Shown: in pieces, positions 24,885 through 42,869 of the stretch
Layout of the letters: each line of letters starts with the position of its first letter
Numbering within the stretch: position 1 is the stretch's first letter
NCBI RefSeq assembly: GCF_000975095.1
Contig: NZ_BBRD01000001.1
Span: forward strand, 1,445,467-1,509,466
Direction of reading: 5' to 3'
Source of the DNA: Demequina aestuarii
GTDB taxonomy: Bacteria; Actinomycetota; Actinomycetes; Actinomycetales; Demequinaceae
DNA length: 64,000 nt
The notes under the pieces: generated by a model
Databases searched by the model: none
What the model saw: the letters and a program-made list of their open reading frames with translations, nothing else
What the model was told of the DNA's origin: nothing
Position numbers and translations under genes: made by a program

Positions 24885-24887
24885 CCT

Positions 24888-28947: not shown

Positions 28948-29012
28948 AGGCGATTCTTGCATGGGCGCGCCGACGGGCGACCGGAGGACCTGATGCCGGC
29001 GCTGCGGTCTGA

Positions 29013-29876
29013 CTAGGACATCGCGGGGATCACGCCGGCCACGACCAGCACGACGATCCCGACCGCCAACGCGATGCGGTACCAGACGAACGGCCAGTAC
29101 GAACGCCTGGTGATGATCCTCAGGAACCACACGATCACGACATAGCCCACACCGAACGCCACGATCGCGGCGATCACGGTGTTGACGATTCCTGGCCCCC
29201 CGTCGGCCGTGATCTCCCCGGAGTTCGACAGCAGTTGGAAGAACCCCGACCCGAGGACTGCCGGGATGGCGAGCAGGAACGAATAGCGGGCCGCGGCCTC
29301 GCGGGTGAGCCCCAGCAGCAGGCCCATCGAGATGGTGCCGCCGGAACGTGAGACGCCCGGGACGAGCGCCATGGCCTGCGCGAGTCCCAGCAGGATCGCG
29401 TCCTTGCCTCGCACGTCGTCGAGCTCGCGCCGCTTGGCGCCGATCTTGTCGGCGAAGCCCAGCACCAGAGCGAAGATCGCGAGACCCGCAGCGGTGAGAT
29501 ATAGGTGGCGCAGTTGGTTCTCGATGTAGTCCTGGAAGAGCACGCCGAGCACCACGATCGGGATCGAGCCGAGGATGACCCACCAGCCCATGCGCGCGTC
29601 GGCATTGTGGGCGCCCAGCCGGGACGCGCGGTCGCGGCCGTGCTTGCCCGCGAGCGCGCGCATCCACGACGACACGATCCGGACGATGTCCTTCCAGAAG
29701 TACAGCAGGACCGCCGCCTCGGTGCCGATCTGGATGATCGCCGTGAACGCCGCACCGGGATCGCCACCGCTCGGCAGCAGCGGACCCACGACGCGGACGT
29801 GCGCACTCGAGGAGATCGGCAGGAACTCCGTGATTCCCTGCACCACTCCGAGCACGACGGCTTCCCACCAGTTCAT
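29013..29876 (-). CDS. uppP: Undecaprenyl-diphosphatase UppP
   Basis: UppP dephosphorylates undecaprenyl diphosphate on the outer face of the membrane, recycling the carrier for peptidoglycan and other glycans, and confers bacitracin tolerance. The 287-residue protein has about eight membrane helices and both family motifs: GITEFLPISSSAH near the N-terminus and PGVSRSGGT in the middle. The ATG at 29876 is preceded by TAGCCT at 7 nt and no ribosome site. The longer frame upstream is antisense to the aldo/keto reductase gene. Confidence 0.95.
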   Translation of the reverse strand: MNWWEAVVLGVVQGITEFLPISSSAHVRVVGPLLPSGGDPGAAFTAIIQIGTEAAVLLYFWKDIVRIVSSWMRALAGKHGRDRASRLGAHNADARMGWWVILGSIPIVVLGVLFQDYIENQLRHLYLTAAGLAIFALVLGFADKIGAKRRELDDVRGKDAILLGLAQAMALVPGVSRSGGTISMGLLLGLTREAAARYSFLLAIPAVLGSGFFQLLSNSGEITADGGPGIVNTVIAAIVAFGVGYVVIVWFLRIITRRSYWPFVWYRIALAVGIVVLVVAGVIPAMS

Positions 29877-29883
29877 GACGGCA

Positions 29884-29936
29884 AGGCTAGCGTCAGCGCG
29901 TCGCGCCTCCGGACTCGCCGTCCCGCCCGGTAGCGT
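29884..29936. promoter_or_regulatory. Divergent promoter region uppP / aldo-keto reductase
   Basis: On the minus strand TAGCCT (29889-29884) is 7 nt from the uppP ATG. On the plus strand TAGCGT (29931-29936) is 7 nt from the reductase ATG. Neither gene has a ribosome site, so both mRNAs may be leaderless. Confidence 0.4.
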
Positions 29937-29943
29937 CGCGTGC

Positions 29944-30903
29944 ATGCAGCGCAGACGGGTCGGCACGAGTGGATTGACGGTGTCCTCGCTCGCGCTCGGC
30001 ACCATGACGTGGAGCCGGGACACCGGTCCGGACGAGGCCGGCGCGCAGCTCGATGCCTTCCTCAGCGCCGGCGGGACGCTGCTCGACACGGCGGCCTCGT
30101 ACGCCGGCGGAGGCGCAGAGTCCCTCATCGGCACGATGCTGGGCGGAACCATCTCCCGGCGCGACGTGCAGATCTGCACCAAGGCGGGCATCCGGCGCAC
30201 CGCGGAGGGCGGGCTCATCGACGCGTCGCGCGACACCCTGCTCGACACTCTCGACGCGTCCTTGGAGCGCATGGGCACCGACCACGTCGATCTGTGGCTC
30301 GTGCACGCTTACGATCCCGTCGCCCCCGTCGAAGAGACGCTGCACGCACTGGAGATCGCAGTGAACTCCGGGCGCGCGCGCTACGTAGGCGTCTCGAACT
30401 ACCCCGGCTGGGCGACCGCACAGATCTCGGCGCTCGCCACTCGCCCCACCATCACGGCGACGCAGGTCGAGTACTCGCTGCTGCAGCGAGGCGTCGAGCG
30501 TGAGGTGCTGCCGGCCGCCGATGCGCTCGGCATGGGTGCGCTCGCGTGGTCTCCCCTGGGACGCGGGGTGCTGACGGGCAAGTACCGCGACGCCATCCCG
30601 GCGGACTCGAGGGCGGCATCGGAGCACCTGGCCGGTTTTGTGTCTCCCTACCTCGACGACCGGTCCGCGGGCATCGTCGACGCGCTCACGACGGCGGCGG
30701 AAGGGCTCGACGAGCCTCCGCTCGCGGTGGCGCTGGCGTGGGTGCTCGGGCGTCCCGGCATCAGCTCCGCGATCGTGGGAGCGCGCACTGCGGCACAGCT
30801 CTCGCCGTCGTTGACTGCCGCCGACCTTGATCTTCCGCCCGCGATCGCCGAGGCGCTCGACGAGATCTCTGCCCCCCACATCGGCTACCCCGAGCGCCGG
30901 TAG
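29944..30903 (+). CDS. Aldo/keto reductase
   Basis: A 319-residue NADP-dependent TIM-barrel oxidoreductase. The catalytic tetrad is recognisable: Asp in LLDTAASYAGGGAE with Tyr, Lys in ICTKAGI, and His in LWLVHAYDP. The cofactor-binding end is AWSPLGRGVLTGKYR and later IVGART. It reduces aldehydes or ketones; the substrate is unknown. The gene is divergent from uppP and convergent with the acidic protein gene downstream. Confidence 0.92.
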   Translation: MQRRRVGTSGLTVSSLALGTMTWSRDTGPDEAGAQLDAFLSAGGTLLDTAASYAGGGAESLIGTMLGGTISRRDVQICTKAGIRRTAEGGLIDASRDTLLDTLDASLERMGTDHVDLWLVHAYDPVAPVEETLHALEIAVNSGRARYVGVSNYPGWATAQISALATRPTITATQVEYSLLQRGVEREVLPAADALGMGALAWSPLGRGVLTGKYRDAIPADSRAASEHLAGFVSPYLDDRSAGIVDALTTAAEGLDEPPLAVALAWVLGRPGISSAIVGARTAAQLSPSLTAADLDLPPAIAEALDEISAPHIGYPERR

Positions 30904-30912
30904 CGCGATGAT

Positions 30913-30931
30913 GCGCCTGCGCCTCAGGCGC
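30913..30931. terminator. Weak hairpin between convergent genes
   Basis: GCGCCT (30913-30918) pairs with AGGCGC (30926-30931) around a 7-nt loop in the gap between the reductase and the acidic protein gene. No T-tract follows on either strand, so it is at best a weak terminator. Confidence 0.25.
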
Positions 30932-31323
30932 TATCGCAGATCGAACTCGTCGATGTCGTCGTCCATATCGTCGTCGTCCTCGACAGCGTGGGGATCGAGC
31001 GCTTCGTCGGCGTCCGGGTCATCGCCCGACGCCCCCGTGTCATCGTCACCCTGGTCGTCGTCCGGGTCGTCGTCATCATCGTCGACGTCGTCCTCGCCGT
31101 CATACTCGTCGCCCTCGGAGTCGTCGAGGACGAGAGGGAGCGTCTCCCCGTACTCGGAGTCGAGGATGTCCTCGTATCGCTCGAACTCCGTCGCGACGGC
31201 CTCGTACGCATCGTCCACGGCGGCGTCCGCATCGCCTCGCCGCATCGCGATCGCCTCGAGGTGCTCCTCAAGGGCGGCCATCAGTCGCCTCAGTGCTTCG
31301 GTCGCCTCTGCGCTCATGGTCAT
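30931..31323 (-). CDS. Acidic protein of unknown function
   Basis: A roughly 130-residue protein with two parts. The first about 65 residues form a probable helical domain (SAEATEALRRLMAALEEHLE and following). The second half is an extreme run of Asp and Glu broken by a few Gly and Pro, encoded by GAC/GAG repeats, and ends DEFDLR. Similar acidic-tailed proteins occur beside DUF5703 genes in Actinobacteria. I do not recognise a function; such tails often mimic nucleic acid or bind basic proteins. The start may be the ATG at 31323 or at 31317. It is divergent from the DUF5703 gene, with 36 bp between. Confidence 0.7.
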   Translation of the reverse strand: MTMSAEATEALRRLMAALEEHLEAIAMRRGDADAAVDDAYEAVATEFERYEDILDSEYGETLPLVLDDSEGDEYDGEDDVDDDDDDPDDDQGDDDTGASGDDPDADEALDPHAVEDDDDMDDDIDEFDLR

Positions 31324-31359
31324 GACGGTACTCGCGGATCGTATTGAATGGGAGAGATC

Positions 31360-31614
31360 ATGAAGGAAATCGCATCTGACGCCACCCATGTGGTCACCTC
31401 CACACGCGGCCGGCCTTCGAGCTCGAGCCGTCTCGAGTGGCGCGTGATCGAGATCCCGCGTGACGTCCCCCGCGCCGACACCCGCTCGCTGCTCACGGAG
31501 CAGGCGGAGTACGGGCGGTGGGAGCTGGCGCGCTCACAGATTCTCTACGGCGGCGCCCGACGGGTGTGGCTGCGGCGACGCGTCATGCGCGTCCAGCGCA
31601 CCGACGCCGCCTAA
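31360..31614 (+). CDS. DUF5703 family protein
   Basis: An 84-residue basic protein with the DUF5703 core LEWRVIEIPRDVPRADTR, LLTEQAEYGRWELAR and VWLRRRVMRVQRT. The family is confined to Actinobacteria and has no assigned role; its high Arg content is consistent with nucleic acid binding, which is inference. I chose the ATG at 31360 because GGGAGA lies just upstream; an in-frame ATG 12 nt earlier lacks a site. It is convergent with the M20 peptidase gene. Confidence 0.85.
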   Translation: MKEIASDATHVVTSTRGRPSSSSRLEWRVIEIPRDVPRADTRSLLTEQAEYGRWELARSQILYGGARRVWLRRRVMRVQRTDAA

Positions 31615-31648
31615 CGCCTCTGCTGTCCGGCGCCCACTGTCGCCGCCG

Positions 31649-32950
31649 TCAGCAGTCGCGCAGGAACCGCTCCAGCACGCGGGTGCCGAAGTGCAGGCTG
31701 TCGACCGGGATGCGCTCGTCGATGCCGTGGAAGAGCGACGGGAAGTCCAGGTCCGGCGGCAGCTGAAGCGGAGCGAATCCGTATCCGGTGATCCCCAGCG
31801 CGGCCAGGTGCTTGTTGTCCGTGCCACCCATCAGGGAGTACGGCAGCACGGGCGCGTCCGGGTCCTCGGCGCCAAGCGCGGCGATCATCTTGTCCACGAG
31901 CGCTCCTTCGAAGGGCACCTCGAGGCTCCGCTCGGTGATGTAGGGCTCGACCTTGACGTGGGTGCCCGCCAACTCCTCGATCTGCCGCAGCGCCTGCTCC
32001 TGCTGGCCGTGAAGGTAGCGGCTGTCCACGTACCCGACGGCAGTGTCGGGGATCACGTTCGCCTTGTAGCCGGCGTCGAGCATCGTCGGGTTCGAGGTGT
32101 TCCGCACGGACGCCTCGATCATGGGCGCCATCGCGCCCAGGCCCTCGACGAGCCGATTGATGCACTCGGGAGTGGGCTCGTACTCGATGCCCTCGAGTTC
32201 CGCCACTCCCTGGAGCAGTCTCTCGGCGGTGGGGGTGAGCTCGACTGGCCACTCGTAGGCGCCGATGCGCGAGAGCGCTCCGGCGAGGTGCGCGACCGCA
32301 TTGTCACGGTGCACCAGCGACCCGTGTCCCTGCTTGCCGTGGGAGATGAGCTTGAGCCACTGGATGCCCTTCTCCGCGGTCTGGATCAGGTACGCGCGCC
32401 TGCCATTGACGTAGGCGCTGAACCCGCCGACCTCGCTGATCGCCTCGGTGGCCCCGCGGAAGTCCTCGGGGTAGTGCTCCACCATCCATTTCGCGCCGCG
32501 TGCGCCGCCGTGCTCCTCGTCTGCGAAGAACGCGAGCACGATGTCGCGGGGCGGCTTGGCGCCGGCGCGGATCATGCTGGCGACCGAGGCGAGGATCATC
32601 GCGTCCATGTTCTTCATGTCGACCGCGCCGCGGCCATAGATCATGCCGTCGCGGATCTCGGCGGCGAACGGGTCCACCGACCAGTCCTCCGCAAAAGCCG
32701 GAACCACGTCGAGGTGACCGTGGACCACGAGCGCGTCACGGTCGGGATCGGAGCCCTCCCACAGGCAGGTGACGCTCGCACGACCCGGCTCGGACTCGCG
32801 AATCACGGGTTCCAGGCCCAGATCAGCGAGGAAGGCCGCGACGTACTCTGCGGCCACGATCTCCCCCGGGCCCGGCTCGTCGCCGTAGTTCGAGGTATCG
32901 ATGCGGATGAGATCGCGGCAGATCTGGACGACGTCGAGGGGTGAGGTCAT
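31649..32950 (-). CDS. M20 family metallopeptidase (DapE/ArgE-like)
   Basis: A 433-residue co-catalytic zinc hydrolase. Metal ligands are visible in VVHGHLDVVP, GRGAVDMKN and DEEHGGARGA, with the dimerisation-domain histidine region SHGKQGHGS between and the final His in LFHGIDERIP. It corresponds to the DapE2 type (Rv2141c-like) in Actinobacteria, and may act on dipeptides or N-acyl amino acids rather than succinyl-diaminopimelate. TAGCCT lies 6 nt before the ATG with no ribosome site, suggesting a leaderless mRNA. Confidence 0.92.
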   Translation of the reverse strand: MTSPLDVVQICRDLIRIDTSNYGDEPGPGEIVAAEYVAAFLADLGLEPVIRESEPGRASVTCLWEGSDPDRDALVVHGHLDVVPAFAEDWSVDPFAAEIRDGMIYGRGAVDMKNMDAMILASVASMIRAGAKPPRDIVLAFFADEEHGGARGAKWMVEHYPEDFRGATEAISEVGGFSAYVNGRRAYLIQTAEKGIQWLKLISHGKQGHGSLVHRDNAVAHLAGALSRIGAYEWPVELTPTAERLLQGVAELEGIEYEPTPECINRLVEGLGAMAPMIEASVRNTSNPTMLDAGYKANVIPDTAVGYVDSRYLHGQQEQALRQIEELAGTHVKVEPYITERSLEVPFEGALVDKMIAALGAEDPDAPVLPYSLMGGTDNKHLAALGITGYGFAPLQLPPDLDFPSLFHGIDERIPVDSLHFGTRVLERFLRDC

Positions 32951-32956
32951 GCCCTC

Positions 32957-32962
32957 AGGCTA
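32957..32962 (-). promoter_or_regulatory. Candidate -10 element for the M20 peptidase
   Basis: TAGCCT on the minus strand, 6 nt upstream of the ATG. The remaining 170 bp to the next gene show no other recognisable element. Confidence 0.4.
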
Positions 32963-33135
32963 TCGTCCGCATCGGCCGCCGGAACCGTGACGCCAAGCCT
33001 CGCGGAGGTTTGTGCTGTCCCCCAGGGGCCCGGACACGCCGCCGCCCGCGGCGCCATCCGGTCACAGGGGGGACGTGAGCGGGGCGCGCGCGGGCGGGGC
33101 GTGTCAGACGGAGAGGCTCGTACGCCTCTCGATCG

Positions 33136-33282
33136 TCATGTGAAGAGGCTGACGCCTCCGGGGCCGACGAGCAGGGCGACGACGATGAGCACGGCGCCCA
33201 TGACGAAGTCACGCTGGATCAAGCGGACGATGCCGATGATTCCAATGATCACTGCCGCGATCCACAGGATGGTATCCCACAT
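33136..33282 (-). CDS. GPGG-motif small membrane protein
   Basis: A 48-residue protein with two hydrophobic helices: WIAAVIIGIIGIVRLI, then MGAVLIVVALLVGPGG. A short basic turn separates them and the end is GPGGVSLFT. This is the pattern of small actinobacterial GPGG-motif membrane proteins of unknown role. An AAGGAGG ribosome site 8 nt upstream of the ATG at 33282 is among the strongest in the window and fixes the start; a longer open frame upstream is not supported. Such a good site on a tiny gene suggests abundant expression, possibly under stress. Confidence 0.8.
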   Translation of the reverse strand: MWDTILWIAAVIIGIIGIVRLIQRDFVMGAVLIVVALLVGPGGVSLFT

Positions 33283-33503
33283 GACGTGGCCTCCTTCTTT
33301 GATGATGCTTCTCGTGCTTCGGACGCCATCGACAACCAGGCATCTGCCCTGGACATTCCCGGTTCGTAATCGTTTCGTGATGGGCACAGCGGTGGGAACG
33401 GCGAGAATGCAGTCACATGCCACCATTCCCATAGTGGGGAATATTCACGATGGGGCGGGCGGGCCTGAACGCACCATGGCGTGAAGTGTCCAGAGAAAGA
33501 CGA

Positions 33504-33532
33504 AGGGCCGGAAGCAATAAGCTTCCGGCCCT
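33504..33532 (-). terminator. Rho-independent terminator of tRNA-Leu
   Basis: A perfect 12-bp stem (AGGGCCGGAAGC at 33504-33515 with its complement at 33521-33532) has a 5-nt loop. In minus-strand sense it follows the tRNA 3' end by a few bases and is followed by TCGTCTTTCTC, a T-rich stretch. Confidence 0.85.
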
Positions 33533-33537
33533 GATCG

Positions 33538-33621
33538 TGTCCGAGGGGGGACTTGAACCCCCACGCCCGTTAGGGCACTAGCACCTCAAGCTAGCGCGTC
33601 TGCCATTTCCGCCACCCGGAC
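33538..33621 (-). tRNA. tRNA-Leu (anticodon GAG)
   Basis: An 84-nt cloverleaf: acceptor GTCCGGG pairs with CTCGGAC, with discriminator A. The anticodon stem CTAGC/GCTAG holds the loop TTGAGGT, giving anticodon GAG, which reads CUC and CUU. A long variable arm (TGCCCTAACGGGCG) confirms the Leu class. The T arm is GGGGGTTCAAGTCCCCC. CCA is not encoded. The gene sits 113 bp from the displaced dnaE2 3' end, and tRNA genes are frequent neighbours of inserted DNA. Confidence 0.97.
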
Positions 33622-33663
33622 AGGGTGTCTGAAGTGCCTTATCGGCGCTTCAGCGCGACGGCA

Positions 33664-33669
33664 ATCGTA
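33664..33669 (-). promoter_or_regulatory. Possible tRNA-Leu -10 element
   Basis: TACGAT on the minus strand, 42 nt ahead of the mature tRNA 5' end. The -35 region is poor (CATTGG at 16 bp), so this is tentative. Confidence 0.35.
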
Positions 33670-33734
33670 GCATGGGCGGGAGGCCCCAATGCCACCATCG
33701 GCGCCCGCGACACCCGGTCCGGGCGCGGCTGTGC

Positions 33735-33851
33735 TCACTGGAAGTCCCTGCTCTTGGCGGGCACCTTCAGGGACAGGGGCGAGATGTGCTCCGCCACCAT
33801 GTTGGTGGCCCCGTCCGCCCGCTCGATGCGCCCACGGATCACCAGCGCCGC
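33735..33851 (-). pseudogene. Displaced dnaE2 3' end (38 codons plus stop)
   Basis: In minus-strand sense this 117-bp stretch encodes AALVIRGRIERADG... through KVPAKSRDFQ and a TGA stop. That matches the last 38 residues of the intact DnaE2 (36985-37101) except for the final residue (Gln for Arg). By hand count 107 of 117 bases agree, and almost all differences are silent. A 41-bp block (33793-33833 against 37043-37083) is identical. Similarity stops abruptly at 33851. It has no start and is not a gene by itself. It marks one edge of the inserted segment that ends at the real dnaE2. Confidence 0.9.
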
Positions 33852-33936
33852 CACACCCTGTCCGCGCAGACGGCGCGGTGACGATGCCCGCCTCTCCCTC
33901 GGCGGATCACCAACGCGAAGTACGCGGGAGCACCGG

Positions 33937-34368
33937 TCAACGATCGCGATGTCGCATGTGCCGACGGGCGATGATCACCGCGACAGAGATGATGGCCACC
34001 TCCACCACGACCAGAAGCAGAAGTTCGAAGGCCGCGACCTGGCCCCAGAACTCAGCACGCGTCGGCACCTCCACCCACACCGGCGGCTCAGGACCGCGCG
34101 GATAATATGACGGGTTGCGCACCATCGCCCAGATGATCGAGCCAACCAAAGCGGCCACGCGAAGGGAGACCGGCAATGCACGGCCCGGCCAAGGTCCGCC
34201 AGTCGATAGCAAGGCCGGCAGCAGCGCTACCGGCAATGCGGCAGTGTCAGCCAGCACCGGAACGCGCGCGACCGCGAGGACAAGCCACCCGACGCAGACG
34301 ACCACCTGCCATCGAAGGTAGGGTGCCCACCAGCCGTCATTCACCGGTGCGTCCCTCATGCCAATCAC
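33937..34368 (-). CDS. Small membrane protein, island paralogue 1
   Basis: A 143-residue protein with three to four hydrophobic segments (about 22-40, 45-55, 68-82 and a strong one at 112-136), and the block NPSYYPRGPEPPVWVEVPTR. The C-terminal helix region EFWGQVAAFELLLLVVVEVA is identical in the neighbouring gene, so the two are tandem paralogues. I do not recognise the family. The GTG at 34368 is favoured because AGGAGGGG lies 8 nt upstream, in the 33-bp gap after the paralogue's stop. It is the last gene of the island's three-gene run. Confidence 0.7.
   Translation of the reverse strand: MIGMRDAPVNDGWWAPYLRWQVVVCVGWLVLAVARVPVLADTAALPVALLPALLSTGGPWPGRALPVSLRVAALVGSIIWAMVRNPSYYPRGPEPPVWVEVPTRAEFWGQVAAFELLLLVVVEVAIISVAVIIARRHMRHRDR
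34025..34068. repeat. 44-bp identical block, copy 1
   Basis: These bases are identical to 34487-34530 in the neighbouring paralogue, 462 bp away in the same orientation. They lie inside longer stretches of high similarity. Identity at silent positions points to recent duplication or gene conversion. Confidence 0.9.
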
Positions 34369-34401
34369 CGAGCGCTCCCCTCCTCTCGTCGCCCACACCG
34401 A

Positions 34402-34839
34402 TCACTCGCGACGTCGCGCCTGTCGATCGGCGATGATCGCCGCGATCGAGAAGAAGGCGACCTCCACCACGACCAGCAGCAGGAGCTCGAAGGCCGCGAC
34501 CTGGCCCCAGAACTCAGCACGCGTCGGCACTTCGTCTCCCACTCGCGGCGCGGGACCGCGGGGATTGTAGTTCGGGTGGAGCGCCTGCGTCCAGAGGAGC
34601 GCGACGACGACGCATGCGACACGCGGGACTACCAGCACCGTGCTCCCCACTCTGGACCCGCGAAACGACAGCGCCAACGGCATCAGCGACGCTGGGACGA
34701 GGGCGGTGTCAGCAACCACCGGCACCTGCGCCGCAGCCAGGGCCAACCACACCACCCCGACAACGATCGACCAATGACGGTACGCAACCCACCAGGAGAT
34801 GTTCGTGCGTGGTCGCCGTGGTCCGCTCGGTGCGGTCAC
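34402..34839 (-). CDS. Small membrane protein, island paralogue 2
   Basis: A 145-residue membrane protein with the same layout as the next gene downstream: W-W-x-x-Y near residue 17, ADTA near 44, NPRGPAPRV near 92, then EVPTRAEFWGQVAAFELLLL and a charged RQARRRE tail. The N-terminal halves of the two proteins have diverged, while the C-terminal segment is conserved down to the DNA. The family is not recognised. The GTG start at 34839 follows the stop of the exported-protein gene by 25 bp and has only a weak ribosome site, so the exact start is unsure. Confidence 0.68.
   Translation of the reverse strand: MTAPSGPRRPRTNISWWVAYRHWSIVVGVVWLALAAAQVPVVADTALVPASLMPLALSFRGSRVGSTVLVVPRVACVVVALLWTQALHPNYNPRGPAPRVGDEVPTRAEFWGQVAAFELLLLVVVEVAFFSIAAIIADRQARRRE
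34487..34530. repeat. 44-bp identical block, copy 2
   Basis: Direct-repeat partner of 34025-34068, within the coding region of the second membrane paralogue. Confidence 0.9.
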
Positions 34840-34864
34840 CAGCGTCAGGTCCAGACTCGGGCAG

Positions 34865-36805
34865 TCATGGCAGCGTGGTCAGCGCCCAGCGCGCCTCAGG
34901 GTGACGGTGGGTCGGGTCGCCGTCGGAGGCCTGCACGCTGACAGCGTGGATCGAACGTTCTCCAAGCGTGCTGTCGTAGGTGTCACTCGTGCCAGTGCCC
35001 ACCGGTGTGTCGTCCAGGAACCACTGGTAGGTGACGGTCGCGCTCTCGGGGTCGGTGGCAGAGACGGTGAAGGTCTGGGAGTCACCCCCGGTGATCGTGA
35101 CATGGGCGCTGGCCGGAGATTGCGTGTCGATCGTGGCGACTTGGCTGGCCTCGCTGGACTCGATACGGGTATAGGCGGTCGAGATCATGCCGCGTGCGTC
35201 GGTGACACGGGTGCCCACGAGTTGATCCGTGGCCATCGCCGGAGTGAACGAGGTGGACGTGCCCGATTCGTCGTCGAACACACCGTCCAGATCCAGATCC
35301 CACGTCACAGTCAGGCCACCAGTGCCGCCAGAAGCCGACGCGGAGAGCGTCGATGCCGTGCCGGCGTTCAACGGCTGCGTGGGAGTCGCGACCGTGACCG
35401 ACGGCACCGAAACCGCCTGCACTGCACTGTTCATGGTGGCGACGCGCGCGGCCGCCTCGTCGGCGGCATCGGTGAACGCGGCCTGCAGGTCGTCGGCCGC
35501 ATCGATGACTCCGTCATACGCGTCCAGCAGCGAGACGTCGTCATCGGGCAACTCGATCGCCGCCAGATGGTCGGCCACCACCTGCGCGTCGGCACTGGCG
35601 TATCCGACGGATTCGTAGTCGGCGATCTCCTGGGCGGTGAAACCCGACGTCGCCACCCGGTCCTGAAGGTCCTCCAGCGCCGACACATCAACCGGTGTGG
35701 CCGCGTCGGGGAGGAGCGCGATCTCGTCCCGGACCTCTTCCAACAGGTCGACCAGTTCGTCCTGGTTCGTCACCAACTGAGAGGTGTACTGCTCGAGAGC
35801 GCTGGCATGGGCGACGGCCCAGCGCACATCATCGGCCTGCTGCGCGCCCAGATAGCGTTCGTGGGCGTGCATGATCGCCTCGACCAAGGCCGCCTGCTCA
35901 GCCGACAGGGTCGCGATGCGGCCTTGCCGAGCATGTTCGGCGCTGGAGTCCAACGGTGAGAACGGATACGACTCGTCCAAGCCGACCAAGGACAAGGATG
36001 CGGCGAAGTCATCGTTGATCACCGCCATGTCGAGCCCCACCGCCCGACCATATGCGGGGTCGGCCGGATCGTCGGCAAGGTTCTGATAGTGCTGGGCCTG
36101 AGTGCCCGCCAACGAGTCAATGATCCTCCCGCCGATGAATAGCACACCATCGTGGGCGCTCGTGGGCACTGTCAGGTCGAAAAGGGACGGTATGAACGTT
36201 CCGCCACCGACTCCTCCAGCGTATGCGAGCGGAAATCGCCAACCAGCCGCGCTCGCGTAGTTGTACGCGTCCACGCTCACGCCGACGCTGCTCGCGCCCG
36301 ACAAGAATATCGAGGAGCGGGCCAGCGTCTGCCAGCCTCCCACTTGGGCCTGCCCCTCGGCCTTGAGCGCGGCCGAGTCGAAGGTGTACCCGGCCAGATC
36401 GTCACCGATCACATCGAAGGCGTAGTCGGTGCCGTCCCCCAGCAGGATGTCGTGCGCTGGATCCCAGGTGCCGTTCAGGTCGTTGTCGATCAGGATGTCG
36501 TAGCGGCCGGCCTGGAGCGTTGGCAGCCACGCGTACTCGTCATAGAACGTCCCATACGACTGGAAACGGTTTGGTGAACCGGTGACGTCGATGGCGGCAT
36601 CGCCGTCTGACCACGTGGTGTTCGCGGTCACATAGATGTCGGCCGTCGGCACGATGTGACCTGGTGGGACATAGTCCAGATCACCACTCACGCACACGGG
36701 CTGATTGCGATAGAACGTCTCCTGCGGCCAGAAGCTGCAATCCGAGACGAACGCCGCAGCTGCGGCAGCGGGAGTCGACGCGGCCACAGCGACCATTGGC
36801 GCCAC
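34865..36805 (-). CDS. Large exported protein with PKD-like domains (signal peptide out of frame)
   Basis: The long frame encodes about 646 residues. It opens with a hydrophobic Ala-rich stretch ending in an AAAAAAF cleavage-like site, but has no basic n-region. An N-terminal beta-rich domain follows, with two cysteines and a DNDLNGTWD loop resembling a calcium-binding loop. Next come a central helical, Glu/Asp/Ala-rich region (about residues 290-450) likely to form coiled coils, and two C-terminal Ig/PKD-like domains (SASASGGTGGLTVTWDLDLD, then ATVTYQWFLDDTPVG). There is no sorting signal or membrane anchor. The missing signal-peptide start lies just upstream in another frame; the GTG at 36805 overlaps that frame's stop. 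Function unknown. Confidence 0.7.
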   Translation of the reverse strand: MAPMVAVAASTPAAAAAAFVSDCSFWPQETFYRNQPVCVSGDLDYVPPGHIVPTADIYVTANTTWSDGDAAIDVTGSPNRFQSYGTFYDEYAWLPTLQAGRYDILIDNDLNGTWDPAHDILLGDGTDYAFDVIGDDLAGYTFDSAALKAEGQAQVGGWQTLARSSIFLSGASSVGVSVDAYNYASAAGWRFPLAYAGGVGGGTFIPSLFDLTVPTSAHDGVLFIGGRIIDSLAGTQAQHYQNLADDPADPAYGRAVGLDMAVINDDFAASLSLVGLDESYPFSPLDSSAEHARQGRIATLSAEQAALVEAIMHAHERYLGAQQADDVRWAVAHASALEQYTSQLVTNQDELVDLLEEVRDEIALLPDAATPVDVSALEDLQDRVATSGFTAQEIADYESVGYASADAQVVADHLAAIELPDDDVSLLDAYDGVIDAADDLQAAFTDAADEAAARVATMNSAVQAVSVPSVTVATPTQPLNAGTASTLSASASGGTGGLTVTWDLDLDGVFDDESGTSTSFTPAMATDQLVGTRVTDARGMISTAYTRIESSEASQVATIDTQSPASAHVTITGGDSQTFTVSATDPESATVTYQWFLDDTPVGTGTSDTYDSTLGERSIHAVSVQASDGDPTHRHPEARWALTTLP

Positions 36806-36820
36806 TAACGCGCCACTAAC
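36799..36820. repeat. 11-bp tandem duplication causing a frameshift
   Basis: GCGCCACTAAC occurs twice in direct succession, at 36799-36809 and 36810-36820, and its first five bases begin a third time at 36821. Removing one unit puts the upstream reading frame (starting at 36870) in phase with the long exported-protein frame. The change is +11 bases, so the duplication breaks the gene. Confidence 0.9.
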
Positions 36821-36870
36821 GCGCCGATCGCGGCGACAACTCCCATACGACGACGATTCCGGTTCATCAT
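36805..36870 (-). other. Detached signal-peptide start (21 codons) of the exported protein
   Basis: From the ATG at 36870, with GGGGGG just upstream, the frame reads a basic n-region (MMNRNRRRMG) and a hydrophobic core (VVAAIGALVA), then Arg and TAG at 36807-36805. The TAG overlaps the GTG of the long frame (TAGTG). With one 11-bp repeat unit removed it would continue into APMVAVAASTPAAAAA and give a textbook signal peptide. As it stands it is a short peptide whose end could allow re-initiation at the GTG. Confidence 0.8.
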
Positions 36871-36984
36871 GATCCCCCCTGAATTTGGCCGACCGTCTCC
36901 CCTGACGGCCAACTCTTACCGTGGACGAGTTCTCGATGCGCTGTCAAGGCCATCCTCATCGACACACGTGGGTGCGACCTCCTG

Positions 36985-37101
36985 TTACCGGAAGTCGCGG
37001 CTCTTGGCGGGCACCTTCAGCGAGAGCGGGGAGATGTGCTCGGCCACCATGTTGGTGGCCCCGTCCGCCCGCTCGATGCGCCCGCGGATCACCAGCGCCG
37101 C
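36985..37101 (-). repeat. dnaE2 3' end, copy attached to the intact gene
   Basis: Direct-repeat partner of 33735-33851. The copies agree at 107 of 117 positions (hand count), with a perfect 41-bp core at 37043-37083. Together they bracket the 3.1-kb island. Confidence 0.88.
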
Positions 37102-40100
37102 AGACCGTCTCGCCACCGCCTGGAAGCGACGCCACACCCCCACCGAGCAGATCACGTTGAGGAAACCGGTCTCGTCCTCGAGCGAGATGAAGGTCACCCC
37201 CTTGGCCGTGCCGGGCCGCTGGCGATGGGTCACGACGCCTGCCACAGTCACGCGCCGCTCCGCCTCGTGAGCGAGCACCCCGGCCACGGTGAGGACCCCC
37301 TGCTGGTCGAGCCCGTCGCGCACGAACACCGTGGGATAGCTGTCGGTCGAGACCCCGGAGGCCCATACATCGGCCACGGCCTCCTCCACCGCACTCATGC
37401 CCGGCAGCATGGGCGCGGTGACGTCGGTCGAGAGATCCGGCAGCGTGTCGGGCCCCTCCCTCGACAGCGCGCCAGAGGCCCACAGCCCCTCGCGCCGCGT
37501 CACACCCAGGGACTCGAGCGCCCCCGCCGTCGCGAGCGCCTCCCACTGGGCCGTGGTGAGCCCCTTCTCGGGAGCCAGCCCTGACTCCCCCGTCACGCCG
37601 GAGGGCCGCACCCGTACGCGACGCGCCATGTCGGTGACGGAAGTGAACGGGCCGGCCGCTCGGGCATCGACGATCGCCTGCGCCGCATCCTCGCCGAGCC
37701 CGCGCACTGCCGCCAGCCCCATGCGCACTGCCAGGGTGCGGTCCACCCGCGTGAGGACCGCCATGTCTGCGCGTGCCTCGTCCGGGATCGCAAAAGGCTC
37801 GGCCAGCCGCTCGACCTTCGCGAGCGCGGCGGAGCGCGTCACGCACGGACGCAGCACCACCTGTCCGTGCCTGCGAGCATCGGCCGTGAGCGACTGGGGG
37901 CTGTAGAAGCCCATGGGCTGCGCCGCGAGCAGCCCCGCGTAGAAGGCGGCGGGCTTGTGAACCTTCAGCCAGCTCGAGGCGTACACGAGGTACGCGAACG
38001 AGAACGAGTGCGACTCCGGGAAGCCGAAGTCGGAGAACGCCTTGAGCTTGTCGAAGATCTGGTCGGCGACGTCTGCGGTGACGCCGCGCTCGTGGGCACC
38101 GACCATGAACCGCGCGCGCAGCGCCTCCATGCGCTCCGGCGATCGCTTGGACCCCATCGCGCGGCGCAGCTGGTCCGCGAGGGCCCCGTCGAAGCCGGCG
38201 CAGTCCATCGCCATCTGCATCAGCTGCTCCTGGAACAGCGGCACCCCGAGAGTCTTGCCCAGCGACTTCTCCAGCAGTGGGTGCAGGAAGGTCACCGGCT
38301 CGCGGCCCCGGGCACGGCTGATGTACGGGTGCACAGAGCCGCCCTGGATGGGCCCGGGGCGGATCAGGGCGACCTCGATCACGATGTCGTAGAAGCGGCG
38401 CGGGCGCAGACGGGGCAGGGTCGCCATCTGCGCGCGCGACTCGACCTGGAACACGCCCACCGTGTCCGCAGCGCACAGCAGGTCGTACACCGCCGGGTCC
38501 TCCTGCGGCAGCGAGTGCAGGCCGATGTCCTCCGACTCGGTGTCGCGCACGAACCCAAACGCGTACCGCAGCGCGGAGAGCATCCCCAGCCCCAGCAGGT
38601 CGAACTTCACCAGCCCCGCATCGGCGCAGTCGTCCTTGTCCCACTGCAGCACGGTGCGCCCGGGCATGCGGGCCCACTCGACGGGGCACACGTCGATGAC
38701 GGGCCGGTCACACAGCACCATGCCGCCCGGGTGGATGCCGAGGTGACGCGGCAGCCTCATGAACCGGTCCGCGAGGTCGAGTACCGGTTCCGGGATGTGG
38801 TCGAGATCGTGGGTGGGAGGCGGCTCGGGCCACATCGCATCCCGCTGCTTGGCGGCCCACTCCTCCATCTGCGCCTGCGGCACGCGCAGGGAGCCCCACC
38901 GGTCGATGCTCTTGGACCACGCGTCCTGCTGACCCACGTCGAAGCCCAGCGCCTTGGCGGCATCGCGCACCGCCGAGCGTGGCCGGTACTGGATGACGTT
39001 CGCGACCATCGCGGCATTGATGCGGCCGAACCGCTGGAAGACGTACTGGATCACCTCTTCTCGACGATCCGACTCGATGTCGACGTCGATGTCGGGCGGA
39101 CCGTCACGCTCGGGGGCGAGGAACCGCTCGAACAGCAGCCCGTGAGTGACGGCGTCGACCGCGGTGACGCCCAGGGCGAAGCACACCGCGGAGTTGGCGG
39201 CGGATCCCCGTCCCTGGCACAGGATGTCCTGGTCGCGGCAGAAGCTCACGATGTCGTGGACGATGAGGAAGTAGCCGGGGAAGTCGAGCGCTTCGATGAC
39301 GTTGAGCTCGTGCTCGATCTGCTTCCACGCTCCCGGCACACGCTCGGCGTGGGGGGAGCCGTAGCGGGCGTGGGCGCCGCGGCGCACCAGTTCACGCAGC
39401 CATGAGGCCTCGGTGTGCCCCTCCGGCACCGGGTACGGCGGCAGATTCGGTGCCACCAGGTTCAGGTCGAACGCACATTCGGCAGCGAGCCGCGCTGCCG
39501 TCGTCACGGCCTGCGGATGGCGCCGATGCCGGTGCAGCATCTCTGCGGCCGAGCGCAGGTGCCCTCCCCCGCCCCCGGGCAACCACCCGTCCATGTCATC
39601 GAGCGACGACCGGGCCCGCACCGCCGCCAGCGCCGCCGCGAGGTCCGCGTCTCGCGGCCTCGCATAGTGCGCATTCGAGGTCGCCACGAGCGGCAGCGAG
39701 GCGTCGAACGCGAGGTCCGCGAGTGCGGCGTTGCGCTCCGAGTCGAAGGGGTCGCCGGTGTCCGTGACCTCGACCGCCACGTTGTCGCGGCCGAACAGCG
39801 ACGTCAGCCGGTCGAGCTCGCGGCGTGCCGCGGCGAATCCTGCGGGGGTGACTCCGCCCGAGAGCGCGTTCGCCCCGGCGACGCCCACCCCGGACAGCGC
39901 ACGCCGCACGGTTCCCTTGCGGCAGCCGGTGAGAATCAAGAACTGCCCCGCACCCGTCTCCGCCAGGTCCTCCAGCGTGTAGCGCGCGAGCCCCTTCTCT
40001 CCGGTCGCGAGGTGGGCCATGCCGATGGCGTGCGACAGCCGCGAGTAGCCCTCCGGCCCGCGCGCCAAGGCGAGCAGGTGGCTGCCGCGGGGATCGGGAA

Positions 40101-40371
40101 CCCCCGTGGGCGGGTCCAGCACGGGAGGCCCGCCGGGGGTCTCGGGTGCCCCCATGTGCAGCTCCGCTCCGAACACGGTGGGCAGGTCGATCGCGCGCGC
40201 CGCGTTCGCGAACCTCACGGCGCCGTAGAGCCCGTCGTGGTCGGTGATGGCGAGCGCGCTGAGGCCCAGCCGCCCGGCCTCGGCGGCCATCTCCTCGGGG
40301 TGGCTCGCGCCGTCAAGGAAGCTGAAGGCGCTGTGCGCGTGCAGTTCGGCGTAGTCGACACCATTCGTCAT
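36985..40371 (-). CDS. dnaE2: Error-prone DNA polymerase DnaE2
   Basis: DnaE2 (ImuC) is the translesion C-family polymerase of the SOS mutasome. The 1128-residue protein starts with the PHP domain (ELHAHSAFSFLDGAS, ITDHDGLYG) and has the polymerase catalytic aspartates in PPDIDVDIESDRREE near residue 425. It continues with the finger and helix-hairpin-helix regions (LAAVRGLGEDAAQAIVDAR) and ends with an OB fold. It lacks the tau-binding extension of replicative DnaE1. It lies 9 bp after imuB. The last 38 codons are duplicated, with mostly silent differences, at 33735-33851, so the present 3' end may have been supplied by an inserted element. Confidence 0.96.
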   Translation of the reverse strand: MTNGVDYAELHAHSAFSFLDGASHPEEMAAEAGRLGLSALAITDHDGLYGAVRFANAARAIDLPTVFGAELHMGAPETPGGPPVLDPPTGVPDPRGSHLLALARGPEGYSRLSHAIGMAHLATGEKGLARYTLEDLAETGAGQFLILTGCRKGTVRRALSGVGVAGANALSGGVTPAGFAAARRELDRLTSLFGRDNVAVEVTDTGDPFDSERNAALADLAFDASLPLVATSNAHYARPRDADLAAALAAVRARSSLDDMDGWLPGGGGGHLRSAAEMLHRHRRHPQAVTTAARLAAECAFDLNLVAPNLPPYPVPEGHTEASWLRELVRRGAHARYGSPHAERVPGAWKQIEHELNVIEALDFPGYFLIVHDIVSFCRDQDILCQGRGSAANSAVCFALGVTAVDAVTHGLLFERFLAPERDGPPDIDVDIESDRREEVIQYVFQRFGRINAAMVANVIQYRPRSAVRDAAKALGFDVGQQDAWSKSIDRWGSLRVPQAQMEEWAAKQRDAMWPEPPPTHDLDHIPEPVLDLADRFMRLPRHLGIHPGGMVLCDRPVIDVCPVEWARMPGRTVLQWDKDDCADAGLVKFDLLGLGMLSALRYAFGFVRDTESEDIGLHSLPQEDPAVYDLLCAADTVGVFQVESRAQMATLPRLRPRRFYDIVIEVALIRPGPIQGGSVHPYISRARGREPVTFLHPLLEKSLGKTLGVPLFQEQLMQMAMDCAGFDGALADQLRRAMGSKRSPERMEALRARFMVGAHERGVTADVADQIFDKLKAFSDFGFPESHSFSFAYLVYASSWLKVHKPAAFYAGLLAAQPMGFYSPQSLTADARRHGQVVLRPCVTRSAALAKVERLAEPFAIPDEARADMAVLTRVDRTLAVRMGLAAVRGLGEDAAQAIVDARAAGPFTSVTDMARRVRVRPSGVTGESGLAPEKGLTTAQWEALATAGALESLGVTRREGLWASGALSREGPDTLPDLSTDVTAPMLPGMSAVEEAVADVWASGVSTDSYPTVFVRDGLDQQGVLTVAGVLAHEAERRVTVAGVVTHRQRPGTAKGVTFISLEDETGFLNVICSVGVWRRFQAVARRSAALVIRGRIERADGATNMVAEHISPLSLKVPAKSRDFR

Positions 40372-40380
40372 CGGGCACCG

Positions 40381-42153
40381 TCAGTCATAGACCGCCTCCA
40401 GCACCCACTCCCCGGCGGTGAAGGACGCGAGCACCGCCTGCCCGGGGCTCCCGTCGGGGCGTCGCAGCGCGATCTGCAGACACGCGCGGCGTGAAGCGTC
40501 CGGGGACCACCACCTCTCGGCCACCGGCCACGGGCCGGCCCACGCCTCGACAGGCTGCGCGAGTCCCCACGTCGGCCCGCCCTCGCCATGACCCACATGG
40601 CCGGAGGACGGGTGCCGACGGGCGGCCGCCGCGCGTTCGTCACGTGGATCCACCTGCAGGCGCACCCAGGTCGGAGGGGCGCTCATCGCGAGCCGGCGGT
40701 CGATCCGCACCGGTGCCCCGCCGGCATCCAGCACCTGCAGCGGCTCCGGCAACGGCAGCACGGTGGCGGGAGCGGGATCGGGGATGCGTCCCGGCCACGG
40801 ATGCTCGATGCGGCGGGCGGGCATCGCCTCCTGTCCCCACGGCAGCGAGAGCACCCGGTCCCGAGGCGATCTGCCGCCCTGCTCGCGCACGGCAAGCACG
40901 GCATCCGGCCCGAGCAGGGACTGCACCCGCTCCAGGGTCCGCTGCGCGCGCGAGTCCGCACCCGACACGCCTCCCCACAGATAGGCCTGCTCGCTGCCCA
41001 GCGGCACCACGTCCTCGGCCGTCAGCCCCAAAGAGGTCAGCGGCGCGGGCTCCGGTCCGGTGGAGGTGCCCGACAGCCACCCCTCGAGCTGCCACCGCAC
41101 CCGATCCGTCATGTGCCTGGAGAACGCGCCCGACCGCGACCCCACATCGGTGCGCCACACCCGCTCGAGCATGTCCCCCTGCTCGGTGGTGGCGGAGATC
41201 CGCACCCGGCCACATCGCACGCCAGCCTCGAGGAGGGCGGCGTCGAGCTGCTGAGCCACGTGACCGGCGACGAGGGCGAGCTGCTCGACGCGCTGCGCCG
41301 GCTCCTCGAAATCGTATCTCACCGCGATGTCCTCTTCGGAGCGACGCAGCACCGGCGGCCGCACGTCCTCCCCACGGCCGATGCGGTGGGCCCACCTCCC
41401 CACCGGGCCGAACCTGGCGAGCACGTCGCCCGCCGGCAGCGCCGTGAAGTCGGACAGCGACGTGAGGCCGAGCCTCACCAGCACCCCCACGAGGTCCTCG
41501 ACCTGCTCGCGCTGACGCCTTTCCATGGCGGCGAGTGGCAGCACCCCCACCGGGGCATCGGCCAAATAGTCTCGCGACGTGCCCGGCGGCACCAGCTCGG
41601 AGGCACGCGCGGCGAGGATCGCGGCGAGCAGCCCGTCGGCAGCACCCACGGCACACTCGCAGCCCGCGAGTTCCGCAACGGAGTTCACCAGGGCCTCCGC
41701 CAGCGACTCCTCGGAGCCGTGGAACCGGGCGGCGCCATCGGCGGGGATCATCAGCAGCCCCGGCCGCGAGATCTCCACGCCGGACACGACGTCCTCGGCC
41801 GCCGCCGCGACGGTCTCGAACACGCGCGAGTCCCGGCCCTCGTCGTGGGGCAGGATCACGAGATCGGGGCATGCCCGCTGGGCCAAGCGTTTGCGCATCC
41901 CGCGCCTCACCCCCGCAGTCCGTGCCGCAGCCGAGACCGCCATCATGCCCCGCCCGTGCAGCACCGCCGCAGGGGTGTCCGCACCGATGCCGGCGTCGGA
42001 CATCGCAGCGACCACCGGCCAATCCGGGACCCACAGCACCGCGCGCCGCACCGTCGCCACGGGCCCGGACCGTGCGGGCGAGACCGACCCCGCCCGCGCA
42101 TCGGCCCTCCGAGCACCGTCGCCGGCCGCACGTCGCGACACCATCTCGCTCAT
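40381..42153 (-). CDS. imuB: Mutasome protein ImuB (inactive Y-family polymerase)
   Basis: ImuB is a catalytically inactive Y-family polymerase homologue that bridges DnaE2 and the sliding clamp during SOS mutagenesis. The 590-residue protein has the Y-family palm and finger layout (VLWVPDWPVVAA, then GMRKRLAQRACPDLVILPHD) without the usual acidic catalytic triad. A helix-hairpin-helix region (LVRLGLTSLSDFTALPAGDV) and a long C-terminal tail follow. The segment RVLSLPWGQE may be the clamp-binding peptide. ATGA overlap with imuA fixes the start at 42153. Confidence 0.92.
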   Translation of the reverse strand: MSEMVSRRAAGDGARRADARAGSVSPARSGPVATVRRAVLWVPDWPVVAAMSDAGIGADTPAAVLHGRGMMAVSAAARTAGVRRGMRKRLAQRACPDLVILPHDEGRDSRVFETVAAAAEDVVSGVEISRPGLLMIPADGAARFHGSEESLAEALVNSVAELAGCECAVGAADGLLAAILAARASELVPPGTSRDYLADAPVGVLPLAAMERRQREQVEDLVGVLVRLGLTSLSDFTALPAGDVLARFGPVGRWAHRIGRGEDVRPPVLRRSEEDIAVRYDFEEPAQRVEQLALVAGHVAQQLDAALLEAGVRCGRVRISATTEQGDMLERVWRTDVGSRSGAFSRHMTDRVRWQLEGWLSGTSTGPEPAPLTSLGLTAEDVVPLGSEQAYLWGGVSGADSRAQRTLERVQSLLGPDAVLAVREQGGRSPRDRVLSLPWGQEAMPARRIEHPWPGRIPDPAPATVLPLPEPLQVLDAGGAPVRIDRRLAMSAPPTWVRLQVDPRDERAAAARRHPSSGHVGHGEGGPTWGLAQPVEAWAGPWPVAERWWSPDASRRACLQIALRRPDGSPGQAVLASFTAGEWVLEAVYD

Positions 42154-42869
42154 GCGACCTCCCCGTCGACATTCACGCGGTCCACGTCGATGCGTGCGCC
42201 AGTGCGTGCGAACCGCAGGCCAGGGGCGGCGTCCAAGGCGAGGCGCACGCGCCTCACGGCACCCTGTCGACGCCCGCCGACAGCGACGGTGAGATCGCGT
42301 TCGATGAGCCTCCCGTCGCCAGCGCCCAGCCCGTCCCATGAGGAGCGCTCGACCGTGAGCGTCACGTGCGCGCCCGGCCACTCACCCGCAGCGATGATCA
42401 CCCCGCCGCGCTCCTTGGCACGAGCGGCCAACCGGCGACGGTCTGCATCGGACAGCGCGAGCCGCTCACCAAGCAGCACCACATCCATCCCGTCCACGCA
42501 CGCGCCGACCGCCTGCGCCGCCTGCGCCCCCGGGTGAGGGATGAGGGCGAACCTCTCGAGCGCGATGCCCCGCCGGGCGGCCGCCACCACCCCCACCGTG
42601 GGCATGCCGATCGCCGCAGTCCAGGAGCCGGCAGCGGATGCCGCGGAGGCGAGAGCGAGCATGAGCGAGGTGGCGCCGGTGACGGAGACCACCTGGCCAC
42701 GCCCGAGCCCCTCCGGCAGCAACGGCGCGAGCTCCGGAGCAAGAGGCAGCACCGGACGGTCCGTCGCGGGGCGGGGTGCGCCGATGCGCGCCTCGACGCC
42801 CTTGAGCGCCGCACGCGCGCGGCTCAGCCGCCGCTGCTGCGAGGCATCCGGGTCCGTCTGGGTCGACAT
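42150..42869 (-). CDS. Mutasome accessory protein ImuA'
   Basis: A 239-residue RecA-fold protein of the ImuA' type, first gene of the imuA'-imuB-dnaE2 cassette. The usual Walker A lysine is not present (the loop reads VTGATSLML), so ATP binding is doubtful, as is common for actinobacterial ImuA'. It associates with ImuB and is needed for damage-induced mutagenesis. AGGAG lies 5 nt before the ATG. A LexA box stands 36 bp upstream. Confidence 0.88.
   Translation of the reverse strand: MSTQTDPDASQQRRLSRARAALKGVEARIGAPRPATDRPVLPLAPELAPLLPEGLGRGQVVSVTGATSLMLALASAASAAGSWTAAIGMPTVGVVAAARRGIALERFALIPHPGAQAAQAVGACVDGMDVVLLGERLALSDADRRRLAARAKERGGVIIAAGEWPGAHVTLTVERSSWDGLGAGDGRLIERDLTVAVGGRRQGAVRRVRLALDAAPGLRFARTGARIDVDRVNVDGEVA

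What the first reader, a model, noticed from the sequence alone, without database searches (positions are those of the whole stretch)
33735..37101. A 3.1-kb island bracketed by two copies of the dnaE2 3' end, next to tRNA-Leu
The last 117 bp of dnaE2 occur twice in direct orientation, at 33735-33851 and 36985-37101. They match at 107 of 117 positions by hand count and share a perfect 41-bp block. The differences are almost all silent, so the copies diverged as working gene ends; this is not a fresh duplication. That is what an element leaves when it inserts into the 3' end of a gene and brings a replacement end. No integrase is visible between the copies, so it is either a remnant, mobilised in trans, or formed by homologous exchange.
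Basis: partly seen in the sequence, partly recalled or inferred. Interest (0 to 1): 0.72.

Follow-up and report, generated by a model that had tools for sequence, protein, structure and literature searches.

The report
Foreign islet spliced behind dnaE2
An actinobacterium has picked up about 3.1 kb of foreign DNA at the end of a DNA-repair polymerase gene; the new DNA brought its own copy of the gene's last codons, so the gene stays intact while its old end was pushed downstream, most likely by ordinary homologous recombination rather than by a mobile-element enzyme.

Summary
The genus is Demequina. In the closest relative held (G015) dnaE2 ends 114 bp before the same tRNA-Leu with one copy, so the empty site is known almost to the base; 1 of 44 genus genomes (this one) has a second copy. 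The downstream copy, its spacer and the tRNA are the native sequence; 33852-36984 (3133 bp) plus part of the upstream copy is foreign. The cargo, a frameshifted secreted protein and two related small membrane proteins, is otherwise absent from the genus apart from weak partial matches. No integrase was found. Where the copies differ, G015 agrees with the upstream copy at 5' sites and the downstream copy at 3' sites (9 of 10), as one reciprocal crossover inside the repeat would leave. Best reading: a donor fragment 'dnaE2 end + downstream genes' circularised and entered by a single homologous crossover. Integrase loss and one-sided illegitimate recombination remain possible. Extra dnaE2 ends beside toxin-antitoxin genes exist in two genomes of another family, but partly look like local duplications. 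Real, well resolved, moderately interesting.

The parts
36985..40371 (-). dnaE2 (error-prone DNA polymerase III alpha), open over 1128 codons; its last part is inferred to be of donor origin
   Evidence: ORF; Pfam PHP, DNA_pol3_alpha, finger, HHH, OB domains
36985..37101 (-). upstream (proximal) copy of the dnaE2 3' end, in the working gene; inferred native for tail nt 1-81 and donor for the last 15 or so nt incl. TAA
37000..37020 (-). 21-bp identical interval in which the parentage of the copies switches (inferred crossover interval; counterpart 33750-33770)
   Evidence: site pattern PPPPDPDDDD against G015
36871..36984 (-). sequence just behind the donor-type stop codon; does not align with the native dnaE2-tRNA spacer
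34865..36870 (-). cargo gene 1: secreted protein with Ig/PKD-like C-terminal part (matches below Pfam cut-offs); reading frame broken in the signal peptide (ORF as listed 34865-36805 from a GTG)
   Evidence: 46% identical nearly full-length relative in G201
36804..36825 (-). 11-bp tandem duplication that shifts the frame of cargo gene 1; translation from the ATG stops after 20 codons
34402..34839 (-). cargo gene 2: 145-aa membrane protein
   Evidence: no family match
33937..34398 (-). cargo gene 3: 153-aa membrane protein, paralog of gene 2 (54% identical)
33852..33936 (.). junction segment between cargo and the displaced gene end; apparent similarity to dnaE2 upstream sequence is chance
   Evidence: 317 of 1278 control windows reach the local-alignment score
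33735..33851 (-). downstream (distal) copy of the dnaE2 3' end: the native end, displaced; its 5' part inferred donor
33622..33734 (-). native spacer between dnaE2 end and tRNA-Leu, homologous to G015
33537..33621 (-). tRNA-Leu(GAG), native neighbour, not interrupted

Best explanation
A DNA fragment from an unsampled close Demequina relative, spanning the last 117 bp of its dnaE2 and about 3.1 kb of what lay behind it (a secreted protein and two small membrane proteins), entered the cell, became circular by joining of its two ends, and inserted by one reciprocal homologous crossover between its 117-bp dnaE2 end and the resident dnaE2 end. The resident gene kept its own body and took the donor's last codons and stop; the cargo followed; the resident's own last codons, spacer and tRNA-Leu were pushed 3.25 kb downstream as a displaced tail. 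Shown: empty site, direction of displacement, cargo foreign to the sampled genus, silent divergence, no recognisable integrase. Inferred: donor, circular intermediate, single crossover (about 15-36 bp before the gene's end), RecA.
For: Empty site in G015: dnaE2 stop 114 bp from the same tRNA-Leu; the window aligns to G015 as 28235-33852 and 36987-43884 with a 116-bp overlap in G015, i.e. only the island and one repeat are extra there. 16 of 43 relatives have the tRNA within 230 bp of dnaE2. 1 of 44 genus genomes has a second dnaE2 end. Cargo: the large protein matches 3 of 44 genus genomes, own included, the other two only by weak partial matches; the membrane proteins 1 of 44. Copies differ by 8 silent: 1 non-silent codons, so they evolved as working ends in separate genomes. 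At the 10 differing sites G015 agrees with the upstream copy at 5' sites and the downstream copy at 3' sites (PPPPDPDDDD; 2 of 252 arrangements as extreme, 2 of 126 without the linked site). No integrase in 24 of 24 ORFs. GC3 of cargo 0.74-0.80 against 0.84-0.91 in six neighbouring ORFs. Precedent: circularisation by ligation followed by recA-dependent single crossing-over of linear DNA in E. coli (PMC3240628, abstract and Discussion read).
Against: The switch test rests on one near relative and ten sites, one of which (77) goes against it; of 43 relatives only two (G015, G020) show a switch-like pattern, the others agreeing mostly with the upstream copy also at sites 102, 104 and 112. Each copy as a whole matches G015 equally well (106/117 each). 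The switch falls in a 21-bp identical stretch, short for homologous recombination, not in the 41-bp block. No genome with the cargo natively behind dnaE2 was found (0 of 43 relatives in the 3.2-12.3 kb held behind dnaE2; none at full strength anywhere in their genomes). The circular intermediate leaves no separate trace.
Confidence: 0.5

Rival explanations
1. An integrative element used the dnaE2 3' end as attachment site (as e14 uses icd), brought a replacement end, and has since lost its integrase or was moved by one in trans.
For: Anatomy is that of a gene-end island: restored gene, displaced fragment, empty site; e14/icd precedent with a 163-bp displaced icd end (PMC6379469, passages).
Against: No integrase in 24 of 24 ORFs of 60 aa or more; no relative of the large cargo protein found in plasmids, phages or viral contigs; no dnaE2 end found in viral contigs; in phage records one match over the whole 60-aa end (47%) and one weak partial match; in plasmids six records, the match lying under genes annotated as error-prone polymerase. 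In other genomes the extra ends begin at different distances (126, 217, 237, 298 bp), not at one core. 81 bp of dnaE2 homology upstream of the inferred crossover is not needed by an integrase. Whether the host encodes integrases elsewhere was not searched.
Confidence: 0.2
2. Homology-facilitated illegitimate recombination: a linear donor fragment was anchored by homology in dnaE2 and its other end joined by chance inside the resident dnaE2 117 bp before its end, leaving the whole native end downstream.
For: Produces the same layout without any enzyme of the element; proposed for displaced 3' regions in Vibrio T6SS and Rhs loci (PMC5361080, passages).
Against: Predicts the downstream copy to be native throughout, but G015 sides with the upstream copy at 5 of the 6 differing sites in the 5' part. 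Reported as much rarer than ligation plus single crossover in E. coli (PMC3240628), although that paper expects it mainly in competent species.
Confidence: 0.2
3. The arrangement formed in another species and this strain received the whole block dnaE2 end - cargo - tail by two ordinary crossovers in the flanks.
For: Would also give foreign sequence between native flanks; gene content in this interval varies within the genus.
Against: Both switches would have to fall in the same 21-bp interval of the two copies, since any wider separation would leave a longer identical stretch there (inference).
Confidence: 0.07
4. Local duplication of the gene end in this lineage followed by drift.
For: Some extra dnaE2 ends in other genomes look like this (G161 tail B 1 silent: 4 non-silent codons, tail A 8: 14; G621 4: 4).
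Against: Here 8 silent: 1 non-silent, and 8.5% divergence about equal to the dnaE2 difference from the sister species G015; cargo is absent from the relatives.
Confidence: 0.03

Closest known systems
Prophage/element e14 in icd of E. coli (gene-end integration with restored 3' end)
   Same: Insertion at a protein gene's 3' end, element supplies a variant end, old end displaced (163 bp there, 117 bp here) (PMC6379469, passages)
   Different: e14 is a 15-kb prophage with site-specific integration; here 3.1 kb, three cargo genes, no recognisable integrase
Islander-type genomic islands (restored target plus displaced fragment mark the ends)
   Same: Same two-ended signature (PMC4383910, abstract)
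   Different: Islander treats tRNA/tmRNA genes and requires an integrase; here the neighbouring tRNA-Leu is untouched and no integrase was found
Single-crossover (Campbell-type) insertion of circularised linear DNA
   Same: Direct repeat of the homologous segment flanking the insert, one parentage switch, no dedicated enzyme (PMC3240628, abstract and Discussion)
   Different: Seen there in an E. coli conjugation assay; here inferred from a natural locus
Homology-facilitated illegitimate recombination / displaced 3' regions of Rhs and T6SS effector arrays
   Same: New DNA anchored in a conserved gene pushes the old 3' end downstream (PMC5361080, passages)
   Different: There the new 3' end changes protein function; here dnaE2's end is merely restored
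Minimal mobile element (variable cassettes between conserved genes; content recalled, only a search listing seen)
   Same: The dnaE2-tRNA-Leu interval holds no gene, a 739-aa pump-like gene plus a 259-aa gene, or this islet in different Demequina
   Different: No duplicated gene end is part of that concept as I recall it

Membership tests
Integrase-dependent genomic island in a gene 3' end | empty site in relatives | tested here: met
   one dnaE2 end in 43 of 43 relatives; tRNA-Leu within 230 bp of dnaE2 in 16 of 43, G015 among them
Integrase-dependent genomic island in a gene 3' end | restored target gene plus displaced fragment | tested here: met
Integrase-dependent genomic island in a gene 3' end | integrase gene in the element | tested here: not met
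   24 of 24 ORFs of 60 aa or more overlapping the island scanned with Pfam; the 3 cargo ORFs also with NCBIfam, PHROGs and PADLOC
Integrase-dependent genomic island in a gene 3' end | fixed attachment core shared by independent insertions | tested here: inconclusive
   extra ends in G174, G161, G621 start at 126, 217/298, 237 bp before the gene end; too few and not all clearly insertions
Single-crossover insertion of a circularised fragment | insert flanked by direct repeats of a segment homologous to the target | tested here: met
Single-crossover insertion of a circularised fragment | one reciprocal switch of parentage inside the repeat | tested here: inconclusive
   9 of 10 sites fit against G015; 2 of 252 arrangements as extreme; but it rests on one near relative, and 2 of 43 relatives show a switch-like pattern
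Single-crossover insertion of a circularised fragment | donor lineage with the cargo directly behind dnaE2 | tested here: inconclusive
   none in 43 relatives; donor may be unsampled
Single-crossover insertion of a circularised fragment | RecA dependence | not testable with these tools
   needs an experiment
Homology-facilitated illegitimate recombination | one homologous and one illegitimate boundary, displaced end fully native | tested here: inconclusive
   abrupt boundary at 33851/33852 fits; 5' sites of the displaced copy disagree with G015
Minimal mobile element | different gene content between the same conserved flanks in different strains | tested here: met
   between species of the genus:
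Minimal mobile element | exchange by homologous recombination in both flanking genes | tested here: inconclusive
   only one switch point seen

The most novel reading that the evidence does not exclude
The 3' end of dnaE2 is a recurrent, integrase-free docking site in Actinomycetes: small cargo modules (AbiE or HTH-PIN toxin-antitoxin pairs, or this secreted/membrane set) travel as circles that carry a dnaE2 end and enter and leave by the host's homologous recombination, leaving strings of displaced ends.
Probability: 0.12. Interest if true: 0.7.

Novelty: new member of a known kind. Interest (0 to 1): 0.4.

Why it matters
It is a natural, closely resolved case in which foreign genes entered at a gene end without visible mobile-element machinery and without breaking the gene, with a parentage switch that may still be readable. 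If the similar dnaE2 ends beside toxin-antitoxin genes in another family reflect the same process, island finders that demand an integrase would miss a route of gene acquisition, and a scan for displaced ends of protein genes would reveal it.

Tried and rejected
A homology of the junction segment 33852-33936 to dnaE2 upstream of the repeat looked strong against shuffles (0 of 500 reach it by an anchored score), but by a plain local-alignment score 317 of 1278 ordinary windows do as well: taken as chance. Relatives of the large cargo protein in plasmids, phages and viral contigs: none found; the dnaE2 end in viral contigs: none found. Structure prediction of cargo gene 1 from its single sequence failed (mean pLDDT 36) and was not searched. 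No PDB match for a two-sequence profile. Rfam shows only the tRNA in 32900-40500. In one search two GC3 rows (a uppP-like and an imuB-like gene) were out of frame and were dropped; one search repeats the count in frame.

Genomes with more than one dnaE2-end match, checked and not counted as cases: G054 (second end at a contig edge, 83% and continuing past the stop: probably a second strain), G278, G549, G567 (two long frames each), G518 (141 bp, 100%, at two contig edges: assembly overlap; its third match, in a 621-codon frame, not followed), seven genomes of f19 (second match in a 1175-codon frame, probably DnaE1, not verified), G535 and G671 (second match in 677- and 1202-codon frames, not verified), G477 (further copies in broken frames beside a long one), G538 (35.8% partial match, unclear). 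Single-match genomes with short frames: G664, G556, G678 (only a C-terminal part or fragments of dnaE2), G690 and G471 (one match each). A third match of G621 in a 251-codon frame was not followed.

Limits: genome searches scored only part of the first-look candidates (3 per genome; 14; 6), so their counts are lower bounds. The order and class samples share genomes. The order and class searches used only the C-terminal end of DnaE2, so internal fragments would not have been seen.
Full report
What is there. On the minus strand dnaE2 (40371-36985) is followed by a broken secreted-protein gene (34865-36870), two paralogous membrane-protein genes (34402-34839, 33937-34398), a second copy of the last 117 bp of dnaE2 (33735-33851), a 113-bp spacer and tRNA-Leu(GAG) (33537-33621). 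The copies agree at 107 of 117 positions; 8 differing codons are silent (stop pair included), 1 is not. In 440 kb of the same chromosome the only other local direct repeats at the thresholds used are two pairs of paralogous genes; there is none in 534 kb fetched from 43 relatives, mostly behind dnaE2.

Which copy is native. The named relatives of the gene at 81% or more are Demequina or Demequinaceae (22 of the 24 loci; the other two are distant). Among 44 genus genomes, own included, all have the dnaE2 end and only this one has two. In G015, the closest relative held (903 of 1000 bases before the repeat), dnaE2 ends 114 bp before the same tRNA-Leu. The window aligns to it as 28235-33852 and 36987-43884 with a 116-bp overlap in G015: here everything but the island and one repeat is collinear. 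The downstream copy continues into the native spacer and its last 21 bases equal G015's, so it is the displaced native end; the upstream copy ends with a different last codon and stop and is followed by unrelated sequence. tRNA-Leu lies within 230 bp of dnaE2 in 16 of 43 relatives, 377-6074 bp away in 26, and was not reached before the contig end in 1. In distant species the interval holds other genes, among them a 739-aa protein that I take for a pyrophosphatase pump (recalled) and a 259-aa protein.

The cargo. The large protein matches 3 of 44 genus genomes, own included; the other two matches are weak and partial. In an even sample of 396 genomes of the order 17 had some match, own and those two included, mostly partial and most often in family f20 (8 genomes); only 3 candidates per genome were scored. 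The best, in G201, is 46% identical over nearly the whole length and is followed by a small membrane-protein gene that resembles cargo genes 2 and 3 only weakly (25%). The membrane proteins have relatives in 1 of 44 genus genomes (the own) and 2 weak ones among 395 others. GC3 is 0.74-0.80 against 0.84-0.91 in six neighbouring ORFs. Cargo gene 1 carries an 11-bp tandem duplication in the signal-peptide region, so translation from its ATG would stop after 20 codons; a downstream GTG lacks the charged start of the signal. It may be dead or switchable. Its Pfam matches (Ig, PKD, BiPBP_C) lie below the curated cut-offs, an NCBIfam match far below, a phage tail family matches at 7e-5, probably through an Ig-like domain (inference); PADLOC gives nothing. 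The two membrane proteins match no family.

How it got there. The silent pattern and the 8.5% divergence, like that between sister species, say that the two ends evolved in separate genomes as working gene ends. At the ten differing positions G015 agrees with the upstream copy at 17, 59, 71, 74, 80 and with the downstream copy at 77, 102, 104, 112, 115. Apart from site 77 this is one switch, between 80 and 102; 2 of 252 arrangements are as extreme, 2 of 126 when the linked site 104 is dropped. One switch is what a single reciprocal crossover between a circle carrying a donor dnaE2 end and the resident end leaves. A simple origin for the circle is a linear donor fragment, cut 117 bp before the end of the donor's dnaE2 and about 3.1 kb beyond it, joined end to end; the abrupt border at 33851/33852 would be that join. 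Circularisation by ligation with recA-dependent single crossing-over is a documented fate of linear DNA in E. coli (PMC3240628, abstract and Discussion). The model needs no integrase, and none of the 24 ORFs of 60 aa or more overlapping the island matches one. A DNA search with the island matched 11 of 44 genomes, own included, the other 10 only by short internal stretches, none at its ends (6 candidates per genome scored). Against the model: only 2 of 43 relatives (G015, G020) show a switch-like pattern, and most relatives agree with the upstream copy also at 102, 104 and 112, so the test hangs on G015 being the right guide; the two copies as wholes are equally close to G015 (106 of 117 each); the switch lies in 21 identical bases only; and no donor with this gene order was found.

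Is it a recurrent site? In the order sample 245 of 396 genomes had a dnaE2-end match and 5 had more than one: the own, G054, G161, G174, G278. G174: the dnaE2 end is followed by AbiEi and AbiEii genes, then a 160-bp second end 97% identical, then directly a third, diverged one, read by eye; its dnaE2 runs off the contig, so only about 200 codons are seen. G161: two extra ends (298 and 217 bp) flank an HTH gene and a PIN-like gene (below the Pfam cut-off) on one contig, while a dnaE2 open over 792 codons to the contig start is on another. G054 and G278 are not such cases. In the class sample 182 of 394 matched and 16, own included, had more than one match (14 candidates per genome scored); the 15 others plus 5 single-match genomes were rechecked, and one, G621, has a clear extra end, at another locus. 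These extra ends differ in length, and non-silent changes are as common as silent ones or more so in G161 (tail B 4 against 1, tail A 14 against 8) and G621 (4 against 4), which suggests local duplication and drift rather than import; G174 (1 against 2) has too few. So recurrence is a lead, not a result; a control with other genes was not run.

Literature. Restored-gene-plus-displaced-fragment islands are well known (Islander, abstract; e14 in icd, passages), as are displaced 3' regions attributed to one-sided illegitimate recombination (passages of PMC5361080). Searches bearing on dnaE2 as an integration site showed 20 of 233, 12 of 367 and 6 of 6 papers; by title and start of abstract none appeared to describe it. 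Of these only PMC7466150 was opened for this, and its passages concern an imuABC cassette inside an ICE.

Verdict. The most likely route is homologous recombination of a circularised fragment rather than an integrating element. It is a clean new example of known processes.

Noticed in passing
window 36804-36825: 11-bp tandem duplication breaks the frame of the island's secreted-protein gene inside the signal peptide; could be decay or a slipped-strand switch.
   Followed up: partly
window 24863-26645: A second stretch absent from G015: a methyl-accepting chemotaxis protein gene with a Cache domain (24888-26513, minus strand) between collinear flanks.
   Followed up: partly
L164 (G174 contig C70) about 10100-12764: dnaE2 end, AbiEi-AbiEii pair, near-identical 160-bp dnaE2 end, and directly behind it a third, diverged dnaE2 end; a second AbiE-like pair lies further on.
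   Followed up: partly
L138 (G161 contig C22) 4679-6387: Two extra dnaE2 ends flank HTH and PIN-like genes on the opposite strand.
   Followed up: partly
L231 (G621 contig C27) 9161-9405: A 245-bp copy of the dnaE2 end, 96% identical, at a locus other than dnaE2.
   Followed up: partly
window 33937-34839: The two membrane-protein genes are tandem paralogs (54% identical), so the islet has itself undergone a duplication.
   Followed up: no
L064, L067, L090 behind dnaE2: In distant Demequina the dnaE2-tRNA-Leu interval holds a 739-aa pump-like protein and a 259-aa protein.
   Followed up: no
L234, L235, L236 (G664, G556, G678): dnaE2 reduced to a C-terminal part or fragments in three genomes of family f36.
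   Followed up: no
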